NCBI RefSeq assembly: GCF_040954835.1
Contig: NC_090709.1
Coordinates: 46,580,976-46,644,975 of the forward strand
DNA: 64,000 nucleotides
Direction of reading: 5' to 3'
DNA from: Lepisosteus oculatus
Lineage: Eukaryota; Chordata; Actinopteri; Semionotiformes; Lepisosteidae
This document shows, one piece after another, positions 1-3,053 of the stretch. Every line of letters begins with the position of its first letter. The first letter of the stretch is position 1. A model generated the notes under the pieces. That model saw only the letters and a list, made by a program, of their open reading frames with translations, was not told the origin of the DNA and ran no database searches. Made by a program: the position numbers and the translations under genes.

Positions 1-3000
1 GCTATGAGCGATGGGGTAAATGTCACATACTCCTCTACTGAGAAGAGTGGAATCAAGTGGGTTGGGATTTGTGCCATGGTTAGACTGGCTACAGTGGCAC
101 TAAACTCCCTTAACAGGTCTTGTGTCAACATTCTGGCCTGTTGCACACAAGCATAAACCCACTGTATAACACCAACAATCATGTCCACTGGTTGGGGAAT
201 AAGGTTTAACCCTGTTGCATAGGAAGTTGCCTGTAGGGTTTTCCCTAAGCTTTCCAACTTTTGCTGCTGTCGATACAGTCTGTCACTACCCTCTGGCATC
301 TCTGACACCTGCCTTCTTGGGGCAGTCAGGGTGAGAGTGCCAGTAGCACACAAACCTACCAGAAATAGCAAACGTGCAACAGTGGCGGCAGCAATCAGTC
401 CTCCCAAAAGTCTTTTCGGGTGGCTGATCCCAGTCATCTCCTTCTGAGTGACTGTTGCCTTTCTAAGCTGGCGCAGCGTGTACATGGTGTCTTTCTCAGT
501 ATGCCATGTGGCATCTTGAGCACCAACATCCTGGAAATCTGGGGAGATCTGACGCAGCTGCTGATGCTGCTCCTCCTTTTCCCGGGCATCTGCTTTTTCG
601 ATTTCTTCATGCCTGTGCTCTAGGAACCCTGCAGGGGGCGGTGCAGCAGTGGAGCATGCCTGACCCTCGGCTGAGTGGTCATCTGGAGCACCTGAGTGAT
701 CTGGGATTGTTACCCTATTCTCACTGTTCAGGTCCACCCTGCACACTTCCTGATTGAGGAATTCCTCTATCGGCATGTTTACAATCGTTTGCTGGGGGTA
801 GGTGTAGGACACCTGCTCGCTCCCCCCTTCCCTCGCTAGGGGTTCAGGGAGCTGCCCCAGCACTGGGATAGCTAGTTCACTGTCTTTGAACTCACTATCA
901 CTCACCAGGCCCATGTCAGTGCAGGCGGGGATTCTGACACCTCTCTTTGCGATGTCCTGCACTGGCAAGCGGGTGACTTGACCATCCAGCTCCAGTCTGG
1001 CTGAACCACTGTTGGTCAGACTCAGACTGACAGACTGAGCTGGTGGCTGTAAGAAAACCGGCTCGGCTTTCATTCCCTGTCCCTTCTGGGGGACTGGGTG
1101 TGTTGGCAACCCTGCCGTTGAGGCAGGAACAATCAGGTCAGTCTCACTCACTACCTGGTAGTTGTGAGAAATAATGTTACCTGACTGCAGGTTCCCTGGG
1201 TCACAGCAGAGGGAATCGGCATCTGGGATCAGGTGTGTCCACAGCGCAGTAGTCTGAGCGTCCAGCTGGACCTCCTGTCTAACCTGTGAATGTTGCACCA
1301 GAGGCACCTGGCGGTGGCCCTGTGACAGCTGCTCAAGCAGATCCTCAGTAATAGAGGACCTCTCAGGGCTAAGGGTGAGGACTACATCACCAACCTGCTC
1401 TCCTGCCATCTGGATCCCTTCCACCACTGCGGGGTGGTGGTCCTGACCCCTCTTGGGTGCCAGGGTGCACAGGGAAAGCTCCTTCTCATCGCCAGGTGGG
1501 GAGATCTGCTCCTCTTTAGGGATGTAAAAGGTGTGTGCTTTACCTGGTGGATCAGGCGGCTGCTCGGAGCACCGCTCCTGTGGCATGGAGGCTGTTGTGA
1601 CCTCAGCCGGGACACGACTTCCCTGTATATTTGGGGAACAAGAAAATATTTTTATTTCTTGTCCAGAGGGAACAGAAGGAATCTCCACATAGGCTTCTGT
1701 GTTCGGTGGGCACTGTGTGAGCACAGTCTGCCTCTTGGCCCCCCTTTCCTTCTGTACAGAAGGCTTAGGAGCCTTCACCTGTTTCCACACCTTGCCTTTC
1801 TGGTGATCCACCAAAGGTTCCTCTCTGAGTCGCATGCCCTTTTCTTTTTCTACCCGTTTGAGCTTGCCGTGTGACATCAAACACCTTTCAACCTCAGTGT
1901 CAATCAGTGTCTCACTGTGTAAGACATCTCCCATGGCAGCCTTGAGGTAAAAGCTTCCTGCTTTTCCTCTGTGTTTTACTGCCTGCTCTGTGACTTCAGG
2001 GGTGGAGTCAGCACTCACTTGGGAGTGGCTGACCTCATCCAGGCAGGAACCCTTCCGCTCAATCAGATAGACTGAGGGAGGGAGAGGGGGCGGGTCTCCA
2101 CCTCCTCCAGTGGAGAGTATCAGCTCATTCACGCTTCCGGCAGCCTTGGGGAGCGGTTGTCCCTGTCCTAATAAAGCTTGTTCAAGCCTGGCCAGGCGGG
2201 CGGCTACTGAATCCTTTTGTTCAGCTTTATCTAGCCCTTTCCCTCCCCCGGTGTTCTTATGGCACTTAGGACGCTGGGTGCGGTCCTGTGTGAGTGCTTT
2301 GGAACGGGGCTTAGCCAGCTCAGGAGCCTGTGCTCCTTCGAGCAGGGGGGAGTTAACCCTCCTGGCTCTGACAGCGAACACAGTCGCTTTAACAGCTTTT
2401 TGCTCAGAGCGACTTTGGACATCATACTCCCAGGCTTTCTGCACGAATCTCTTAATATCAGTCATTTTCCTGGTCTGTGCATCTGTATGCATTAAGATCA
2501 TCTTTCTGACTGATGGGTGGAGATTCGCAATGAATAAACCCTTGAAATGTGTGTTCTCTTCGCAACCCTCATCATTTCGCCCTGCAAAATAAGTTCGTCT
2601 AAGTCTCTCGTAATATTCGCGAGGGGACTCTGCTCTCTCGTGCTTAATGTTAAGGGCGGTGGCTATCGCGGCAGTCGGGTCAATAAACGCACTGTATTCT
2701 TCGATAAGTGCATGACAAAGCTGCTCAAAGTCATTACAGACTTCTTTCATCTGCCTAGCCATCCACTCATGTACAGCTCTGCTGGTAGTTTTCCTGACCA
2801 GAAACACTTTCTCCTGTTCTGTGGCGTTTGGCAGGTACTGCAGGTTATACCTGAGGTCTTGAATATAACTCTGGATATTATTCTCTGACACTGCAGGGTC
2901 AAATCTCTCTATGTCCTTCGCTAGCTCTCTCAGAGAATGGAGATTTATTCTAGCTTCTCCGCTGACGGAGATATGACGGAGATCGTGGTCAGACCTGTCG

Positions 3001-3053
3001 CTGCTAGAGAGAGTGCTTAATAGCGACTCGAATTCAGACCTTTTAGCAACCAT
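1..3053 (-). CDS. LTR-retroelement polyprotein, Gag-like to membrane-segment, copy 1 (partial at window edge)
   Basis: Starting from the ATG at 3053-3051 I read every codon to the left edge and found no stop: at least 1,017 codons in one frame, leaving the window. Residues 1 to about 250 resemble a retroviral or retrotransposon Gag capsid, with an ESPREYYERLR segment near residue 145 placed like the major homology region. Near residue 385 a segment like a retropepsin active site reads LIDTE where LIDTG is expected, so the catalytic Asp-Thr-Gly is changed. A long Pro/Gln/Glu-rich stretch follows, then one hydrophobic segment at about residues 882-908 and an amphipathic Q-rich tail. No reverse transcriptase, RNase H or integrase segment was seen. 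Copy 2 of the same element reaches its polypurine tract without one, so pol is absent from the family here. The function of the second half is unknown; an envelope-like role is a guess. Confidence 0.75.
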   Translation of the reverse strand, partial: MVAKRSEFESLLSTLSSSDRSDHDLRHISVSGEARINLHSLRELAKDIERFDPAVSENNIQSYIQDLRYNLQYLPNATEQEKVFLVRKTTSRAVHEWMARQMKEVCNDFEQLCHALIEEYSAFIDPTAAIATALNIKHERAESPREYYERLRRTYFAGRNDEGCEENTHFKGLFIANLHPSVRKMILMHTDAQTRKMTDIKRFVQKAWEYDVQSRSEQKAVKATVFAVRARRVNSPLLEGAQAPELAKPRSKALTQDRTQRPKCHKNTGGGKGLDKAEQKDSVAARLARLEQALLGQGQPLPKAAGSVNELILSTGGGGDPPPLPPSVYLIERKGSCLDEVSHSQVSADSTPEVTEQAVKHRGKAGSFYLKAAMGDVLHSETLIDTEVERCLMSHGKLKRVEKEKGMRLREEPLVDHQKGKVWKQVKAPKPSVQKERGAKRQTVLTQCPPNTEAYVEIPSVPSGQEIKIFSCSPNIQGSRVPAEVTTASMPQERCSEQPPDPPGKAHTFYIPKEEQISPPGDEKELSLCTLAPKRGQDHHPAVVEGIQMAGEQVGDVVLTLSPERSSITEDLLEQLSQGHRQVPLVQHSQVRQEVQLDAQTTALWTHLIPDADSLCCDPGNLQSGNIISHNYQVVSETDLIVPASTAGLPTHPVPQKGQGMKAEPVFLQPPAQSVSLSLTNSGSARLELDGQVTRLPVQDIAKRGVRIPACTDMGLVSDSEFKDSELAIPVLGQLPEPLAREGGSEQVSYTYPQQTIVNMPIEEFLNQEVCRVDLNSENRVTIPDHSGAPDDHSAEGQACSTAAPPPAGFLEHRHEEIEKADAREKEEQHQQLRQISPDFQDVGAQDATWHTEKDTMYTLRQLRKATVTQKEMTGISHPKRLLGGLIAAATVARLLFLVGLCATGTLTLTAPRRQVSEMPEGSDRLYRQQQKLESLGKTLQATSYATGLNLIPQPVDMIVGVIQWVYACVQQARMLTQDLLREFSATVASLTMAQIPTHLIPLFSVEEYVTFTPSLI

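What the first reader, a model, noticed from the sequence alone, without database searches (positions are those of the whole stretch)
1..3053. A >1,017-codon single-frame retroelement ORF with Gag and a membrane segment but no polymerase
Every codon from the ATG at 3053 to the left edge was checked and no stop occurs, although the second copy is broken in several places. The order is Gag-like, altered protease-like, long spacer, hydrophobic segment. Copy 2 shows the same order running to its polypurine tract, so pol is missing from the family rather than just this copy. Such a structure implies either a non-autonomous element packaged in trans or a host-recruited Gag-type gene.
Basis: partly seen in the sequence, partly recalled or inferred. 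Interest (0 to 1): 0.75.

Follow-up and report, generated by a model that had tools for sequence, protein, structure and literature searches.

The report
Polymerase-less capsid retroelement with resident helper
A vertebrate, probably fish, genome carries hundreds of copies of a jumping element that encodes a capsid protein but no polymerase; it most likely borrows the polymerase of a related endogenous retrovirus in the same genome, and only its capsid part is conserved in sequence.

Summary
The frame from 3053 to the left edge is open; outside the window it ends after 1,081 codons. It is Gag, a dead protease remnant, the linker that normally precedes reverse transcriptase, and an Env fragment, fused by in-frame deletions; the "membrane segment" is the Env fusion peptide. 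The same genome holds a related family with a 2,307-codon Gag-Pol frame, dual RNase H and open env frames, the likely helper. So this is a non-autonomous derivative, not a host gene. A 5'-leader string of the family occurs 411 times. In a systematic sample 9 of 28 copies are intact; 12 of 23 dateable top-scoring copies show no LTR mismatch. On internal tree branches only Gag residues 1-240 are constrained (dN/dS 0.28); the other 836 codons evolve neutrally (1.17), yet carry no stop where 13.5 are expected. The frame is kept but the sequence is not. I propose escape from nonsense-mediated decay, untested. Closest known: zebrafish BHIKHARI, Arabidopsis Athila, wheat Quinta/Cereba. New variant of a known kind.

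The parts
2334..3053 (-). Copy 1 ORF residues 1-240: Gag N-terminus and capsid-like region; the only part under amino-acid constraint
   Evidence: weak Pfam; 69% aa identity to partner Gag over residues 35-240; dN/dS 0.26-0.28 on internal branches
2019..2333 (-). Copy 1 ORF residues 241-345: Gag C-terminal tail
   Evidence: alignment to partner; dN/dS 1.00 (internal) and 1.34 (terminal)
1779..2018 (-). Copy 1 ORF residues 346-425: protease remnant, LIDTE instead of LIDTG, 56 partner residues deleted
   Evidence: LIDTE in 30 of 30 loci; partner residues 651-706 missing
504..1778 (-).
   Evidence: 52-63% aa identity by sub-region; dN/dS 1.09 and 1.03
3..503 (-). Copy 1 ORF residues 851-1017: Env remnant, fusion peptide and following helical region, joined in frame to the pre-RT linker; continues to codon 1081 outside the window
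3302..3313 (-). Primer-binding site TGGCGTCCCTGG (tRNA-Asn complement by recall only)
3319..4585 (-). Copy 1 5' LTR (TGTAG...TACA); its 3' LTR lies outside the window, 5 mismatches in 569 bp (0.88%)
60685..61953 (-). Copy 2, Gag part of the broken frame
58834..60102 (-). Copy 2, linker and Env-remnant part of the broken frame
58343..58951 (-). Copy 2: remainder of env around and beyond the ORF end, in other frames
   Evidence: partner env 384-599, 35% identity
58123..58133 (-). Copy 2 polypurine tract AAAAAGGGGGG, same letters as in 30 of 30 loci and in the partner piece L031
57943..58119 (-). Copy 2 3' LTR, truncated stub of 177 bp
62237..63594 (-). Copy 2 5' LTR
43755..45194 (+). LTR of the same group without internal sequence (solo LTR), flanked by GTAG on both sides (possible 4-bp target duplication)
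8551..9845 (+). LTR of the same group (solo); no target duplication recognised
50963..52097 (-). LTR of the same group (solo, start missing)

Best explanation
It is a young, high-copy, non-autonomous LTR retroelement derived from an endogenous retrovirus of lokiretrovirus type. In-frame deletions removed the Gag coiled-coil region, part of the protease, a piece of the linker, everything from reverse transcriptase through integrase together with the Env N-terminus, and the middle of Env. One frame of about 1,081 codons was left. Shown: the order of parts, the deletions, the absence of pol in the copies searched, the copy number, the young insertions, a pol-bearing relative in the same genome, shared polypurine tract and LTR ends, and constraint on Gag 1-240 only. 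Inferred: its RNA is translated into a Gag fusion that assembles, alone or with the helper's Gag-Pol, into particles that package this RNA; helper reverse transcriptase and integrase then copy and insert it. The capsid is constrained because copies whose own capsid works are the ones that replicate. The rest of the frame is kept open, most likely because a premature stop followed by a long untranslated stretch would expose the RNA to nonsense-mediated decay. That last step is a hypothesis (see the section on the most novel reading).
For: Homology and deletions. Pol-bearing relative: RT, two RNase H-type domains and integrase; 42 of 75 env rows span residues 1-601, 27 of them without a stop; a 2,307-codon Gag-Pol frame. 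Shared cis signals: polypurine tract AAAAAGGGGGG in 30 of 30 loci and the partner; LTR start TGTAGCGGC in 22 of 30 loci and the partner; 11 of the first 12 letters of the primer-binding site (partner from one copy each). No pol in L001-L030 or the window. 411 exact 5'-leader matches. No LTR mismatch in 12 of 23 dateable loci. Internal-branch dN/dS for Gag 1-240 is 0.28 (39 N, 58 S; p=3e-10) in 49 distinct sequences and 0.28 (21 N, 31 S; p=5e-6) in the 24 of the systematic set; for 241-1076 it is 1.17 and 1.28, with 0 stops against 13.5 and 7.2 expected.
Against: Trans-mobilisation was not observed and there is no expression evidence. Gag synonymous divergence from the known pol-bearing family is near saturation in the capsid (pS 0.87 over residues 35-100) but only about 0.34 in the linker, so the 5' part comes from another lineage or was exchanged by recombination; the actual helper may be a family I did not find. 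The primer-binding sites differ by one base in the first 12, and 16 of 30 loci, the window copy among them, diverge further after position 12. The 5' leaders align poorly apart from the stretch around the ATG, so a shared packaging signal is not shown. The stop-depletion test uses parsimony on one tree and a set in which 30 of 54 sequences were top-scoring hits, although the systematic 24 alone give the same direction. On terminal branches stops in 241-1076 are also below expectation (27 vs 49.8), which may partly reflect that sampling.
Confidence: 0.8

Rival explanations
1. Purely parasitic derivative: RNA packaged entirely by helper Gag-Pol; its own ORF is an idle relic that looks open because the copies are young.
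For: No LTR mismatch in 12 of 23 loci; neutral dN/dS over residues 241-1076; 19 of 28 systematically sampled copies broken, truncated or diverged.
Against: Gag 1-240 is constrained on internal branches in the whole set and in the systematic set (p=3e-10 and 5e-6), and internal branches carry no stop in codons 1-1076 where 17.2 are expected.
Confidence: 0.1
2. The full-length fusion matters as protein: a C-terminal extension of any sequence (bulk, flexibility, or the hydrophobic segment) is needed on the capsid, so stops are removed while residues drift.
For: 0 stops vs 13.5 expected on internal branches with dN/dS 1.17 in 241-1076; every large deletion kept the frame and all 30 loci share them.
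Against: Env-part dN/dS 1.57 on internal branches gives no sign of a conserved membrane function; natural ends differ by about 5 codons. Not separable from RNA decay with these data.
Confidence: 0.25
3. Host-recruited Gag gene (domesticated capsid) of which the window holds one member.
For: Long open frame and constraint on the capsid region; zebrafish BHIKHARI Gag shows that mobile Gag-only families can have developmental roles (PMC10996621, passages and section 5 read).
Against: 411 exact 5'-leader matches, young insertions with LTRs, most sampled copies broken, neutral evolution outside Gag. The window copy is one insertion present twice.
Confidence: 0.04
4. Interfering Gag: capsids lacking the coiled coil co-assemble with the helper and damp it, as truncated Gags do in other systems (recalled).
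For: Loss of the Gag coiled-coil region with a retained, constrained capsid.
Against: Selection follows copies that replicate, which fits use in their own replication better than pure interference; no functional data.
Confidence: 0.1

Closest known systems
BHIKHARI Bik-1 (and Bik-2/crestin), zebrafish lokiretroviral families (PMC10996621; passages and section 5 read)
   Same: Relatives of lokiretroviruses; for Bik-1: LTR element with one long Gag ORF, no pol in any copy of the reference genome, young and near-identical copies, complementation by a partner inferred.
   Different: Bik-1 Gag is 617 aa and keeps the coiled coil, and the paper found no pol-bearing Bik-1 copy. Here the coiled-coil region is lost, the frame is a Gag-protease-linker-Env fusion of about 1,081 codons, copies are more numerous (411 exact leader matches), and a pol-bearing relative is present.
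Pol-less Athila families of Arabidopsis (PMC2410132; passages read)
   Same: Whole families lack pol but keep gag and/or env frames under purifying selection; recombination with pol-bearing families.
   Different: Plant elements; Gag and Env ORFs are reported to be under selection, whereas here only the capsid part is and the env remnant drifts.
RLG_Quinta / RLG_Cereba pair of wheat (PMC11302176; passages read)
   Same: Non-autonomous Gag-encoding element paired with an autonomous one by primer-binding site, LTR termini and other diagnostic motifs.
   Different: Plant, centromere-targeted; the paper reports identical primer-binding site and LTR termini, here the primer-binding sites differ by a base and the 5' half is much more diverged.
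TR-GAG elements of plants (search listing only; definition recalled)
   Same: LTR elements coding only for GAG.
   Different: Plant elements in the papers listed; no env remnant known to me.
Lokiretroviruses (PMC9040795; passages read)
   Same: The partner's Pol has a Ty3-type RNase H followed by a second RNase H, and the partner has an env.
   Different: The window element has no pol. Env similarity to mononegavirus fusion proteins could not be shown here.

Membership tests
[quoted passage not shown]
   (polypurine tract in 30 of 30 loci; primer-binding core found in 29 of 30)
Non-autonomous (Gag-encoding) LTR retroelement | No RT, RNase H or integrase in any copy | tested here: met
   no match to the partner RT-to-integrase part in the window or in L001-L030, nor in six further sampled stretches; most of the other copies were not read
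Non-autonomous (Gag-encoding) LTR retroelement | A resident autonomous relative shares cis signals | tested here: met
   polypurine tract and LTR start shared, primer-binding site 11 of 12; 5' leader not shown to be shared
Non-autonomous (Gag-encoding) LTR retroelement | Mobilised in trans | not testable with these tools
   inferred only
Lokiretrovirus (origin) | Dual RNase H in Pol | tested here: met
   partner family: RT_RNaseH 287-395 and RNase_H 455-600 of L032; the window element itself has no pol
Lokiretrovirus (origin) | Env similar to mononegavirus fusion glycoproteins | tested here: inconclusive
   no meaningful Pfam or PDB sequence match for P0001; structure model mean pLDDT 36
Lokiretrovirus (origin) | RT phylogeny places it beside lokiretroviruses | not tested
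   no reference RT set at hand
BHIKHARI (Bik-1) | Gag with N-terminal coiled coil as the product | tested here: not met
   the region corresponding to the partner's Gag start up to residue 252 is missing except for a short similar start, and an Env remnant is fused
Domesticated host Gag gene | One or few fixed loci with constraint over the whole frame | tested here: not met
   411 exact 5'-leader matches; dN/dS about 1 over 836 of 1,076 codons

The most novel reading that the evidence does not exclude
A retroelement frame selected to stay open but not for its amino acids: three quarters of a 1,081-codon ORF serves as a translated shield that lets the genomic RNA escape nonsense-mediated decay, while only the capsid domain is kept as a protein, in a capsid-bearing satellite of a vertebrate lokiretrovirus.
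Probability: 0.4. Interest if true: 0.7.

Novelty: new variant of a known kind. Interest (0 to 1): 0.52.

Why it matters
Gag-encoding, pol-less partners of retroelements are known in plants and, without a visible partner, in zebrafish (Bik-1). Here a vertebrate genome holds a pol-less, capsid-encoding family with many young copies together with a pol-bearing relative. Hundreds of copies let selection be mapped along the frame: the capsid is kept, the rest is free to change, yet stops are absent in lineages that went on to multiply. That makes two questions directly testable: whether non-autonomous elements need their own capsid in cis, and whether genomic RNAs keep otherwise useless frames open to avoid RNA decay.

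Tried and rejected
Rejected: Env membrane protein as a functional product (no membrane end left, cleavage site SHPKR where the Env relative has SRPKR, dN/dS at or above 1). Rejected: pol lost only in this copy (L001-L030 share the deletions). Rejected: 42 of 45 stop-free copies as evidence of constraint; these were the best-scoring hits, and the systematic sample gave 9 of 28 intact. Rejected: counting L004-L006 and L008-L010 as separate recent insertions; they form two groups of identical frames, and five of their six contigs also carry 97%-identical pol copies with two or three TGA stops, so they look like an amplified block and were collapsed in the counts. L001 and L002 are one insertion present twice.

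Led nowhere: protein search with words from the first 500 residues (none at E 1e-3), viral contigs, phages, PDB sequences (none, two weak unrelated matches). Structure models of Gag (mean pLDDT 42.7) and Env (36.0) were too poor for a fold search, and none was run. The copy number of the pol-bearing family could not be counted. I could not look for a pol-bearing relative with a closer capsid, because the genome search lists only the best matches.
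Full report
What is there. The minus-strand frame from 3053 to the left edge is open for 1,017 codons. The assembly that holds the window (1.2 Gb, 813 contigs) continues it to a stop after 1,081 codons. The copy has a 5' LTR at 3319-4585, a primer-binding site at 3302-3313 and, outside the window, a polypurine tract and a 3' LTR; the comparable 569 bp of the two LTRs differ at 5 positions. Copy 2 (57943-63594) has the same order, is broken, and has a truncated 3' LTR. Three further LTRs without internal sequence lie in the window.

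What the parts are. Pfam sees only a weak capsid match. The decisive comparison came in two steps. A search with the C-terminal part of copy 2 found one protein, P0001, 601 residues, 61% identical over 71% of the query part; by eye it is an Env with a signal-like start, a cleavage site, a fusion peptide and a hydrophobic end. Searching the window's own genome with P0001 gave 75 rows; 42 span residues 1-601 at 93-99% identity and 27 of these have no stop. Pieces taken from five different copies of that family show: a Gag start that reads as a coiled coil by eye, capsid, protease with LIDTG, a linker, RT, a Ty3-type RNase H, a second RNase H, and integrase, followed by env. A search with the RT-to-integrase part scored 42 copies; 10 have a frame length of 2,307 codons with no stop in the matched part (that column reads through stops, so upstream stops are not excluded). 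In one copy I read directly, 1,220 open codons lie upstream of a stop-free RT-integrase part, which makes 2,307. The dual RNase H is a mark of lokiretroviruses given in PMC9040795 (passages read).

Aligned to that family, the window-type ORF is its frame minus parts (numbering of the translated partner piece): alignment begins at partner residue 253, so the coiled-coil region before it is missing, although the first 20 or so residues of both look alike by eye; then protease residues 651-706, linker residues 887-936, everything after residue 1195 through integrase together with the first 92-98 residues of Env, and Env residues 268-334. After that the frame leaves Env and stops, and Env remnants in other frames continue towards the polypurine tract. 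In L001-L030 the ORF alignment has no length differences except one 3-base indel, so the deletions are shared. The protease reads LIDTE in 30 of 30 loci; the Env cleavage site reads SHPKR in 24 of 30, and the search motif missed 6. No polymerase match occurs in the window or in L001-L030.

How common and how old. A 26-base string from the 5' leader occurs 411 times exactly (189 and 222 by strand; reversed control 0). The string was in 29 of 31 known copies, so this is a minimum for this stretch. From the first 100 listed places (contigs C1 to C5) I took every fifth, replacing one already held by its neighbour: 20 stretches. Of these 28, 9 have an intact frame of 1,076 codons or more, 14 carry stops or frameshifts or end early, and 5 are truncated or too diverged (for L060 the intact call rests on no stop, no frameshift and an ATG). 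Among the 45 best-scoring copies 42 had no stop, but that list favours good copies. For 23 of the 30 loci the fetched flanks overlap enough to compare the two LTRs (271-569 bp): 12 show no mismatch, two of them with one gap, and the largest divergence is 3.79%. These 23 come from the best-scoring list, and two of them (L001, L002) are the same insertion.

Selection along the frame. A first pairwise comparison of 18 distinct open frames gave pN/pS 0.66 overall, 0.47 for residues 1-330, 0.84 for Env. I then mapped changes by parsimony on a FastTree tree and compared them with neutral expectations that use the observed spectrum, with CpG sites treated apart. In one search (54 sequences, 49 distinct) internal branches give for residues 1-240: 39 replacement and 58 silent changes where 68.8 and 28.2 are expected (dN/dS 0.28, p=3e-10). 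The other regions give 1.00 (Gag tail), 0.75 (protease, 14 and 7 changes), 1.09 (linker) and 1.57 (Env). For 241-1076 together it is 257 and 92, dN/dS 1.17. No stop falls on an internal branch in codons 1-1076, where 17.2 are expected, 13.5 of them in 241-1076 (P about 1e-6). With only the 24 systematic sequences (copy 2 included) the values are 0.28 (p=5e-6) for Gag, 1.28 for the rest, and 0 against 7.2 stops (P=7e-4). One search (43 distinct) gave 0.26 for Gag. An earlier run on the 25 distinct best-scoring frames gave 0.28 for Gag; it counted two internal stops, both in the Env part, which I take to be the alternative natural end near codon 1077; the later runs end at codon 1076. Terminal branches carry 35 stops against 63.1 expected, fewer than neutral, and Gag 1-240 is constrained there too, more weakly (0.58); both may partly reflect the best-scoring part of the sample. 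Against the reading: parsimony on a single tree ignores recombination, and the rates come from the same data.

How it most likely works. The element keeps LTR ends, polypurine tract and primer-binding site like those of the pol-bearing family and encodes a capsid that is under selection. The simplest account is a capsid-bearing satellite: its RNA is translated, packaged with its own and perhaps helper Gag, and copied and inserted by helper enzymes. The open but unconstrained remainder of the frame needs its own explanation. A stop inside it would leave up to about 3.2 kb of untranslated RNA before the polypurine tract instead of the natural 700-750 bases, which fits avoidance of nonsense-mediated decay. 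A need for a bulky C-terminal extension would fit too.

A complication. Synonymous differences from the pol-bearing family fall from 0.87 (residues 35-100) through 0.64 and 0.55 to about 0.34 in the linker, and are 0.53 in Env. The 5' half therefore has an older split or a different donor. The family is probably a recombinant, and the best helper may be another lineage that the search, which lists only best matches, did not show.

Compared with what is known. Zebrafish Bik-1 is a lokiretroviral family with a Gag ORF and no pol (PMC10996621, passages and section 5 read). Pol-less Athila families keep gag and env frames under selection (PMC2410132, passages). Wheat Quinta is a Gag-encoding partner of Cereba (PMC11302176, passages). 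Searches for a pol-less LTR element with env, lokiretroviruses, TR-GAG and nonsense-mediated decay with non-autonomous LTR elements listed no paper that, from title and abstract start, describes this combination; most papers listed were not opened. This is a new variant of a known kind.

Noticed in passing
window 1-4620 and G000:C14:47154067 onward: The insertion junction of copy 1 occurs exactly twice in the genome, in opposite orientation about 570 kb apart, with identical ORFs and equal LTR matches: an inverted segmental duplication or an assembly duplicate.
   Followed up: partly
L004-L006, L008-L010; contigs C369, C638, C701, C66, C530, C549 and pol copies on C401, C445, C563: Many smaller contigs carry identical pol-less copies and near-identical pol copies with two or three TGA stops: probably one large amplified block.
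   Followed up: partly
window 38437-39456 and 53242-54261: Two intact Tc1-type transposase frames (339 codons) differing by one base, inside copies 99.6% identical over 1.64 kb with inverted ends of about 215 bases: a very young DNA transposon.
   Followed up: partly
window 21827-28677 (+): Large URGCP-type GTPase gene (1,980-codon frame, Pfam URGCP_GTPase 1e-126), of the GVIN kind by recall, with a further open stretch upstream.
   Followed up: no
window ORF residues 35-240 versus L035: Steep gradient of synonymous divergence between the pol-less and pol-bearing families along gag, suggesting recombination.
   Followed up: partly
window 4586-4653 and 5781-5848; 56518-56729 and 57226-57435: Copy 1 is inserted beside a repeat that recurs in the window in both orientations, and a 213-bp unit occurs twice near copy 2.
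   Followed up: no
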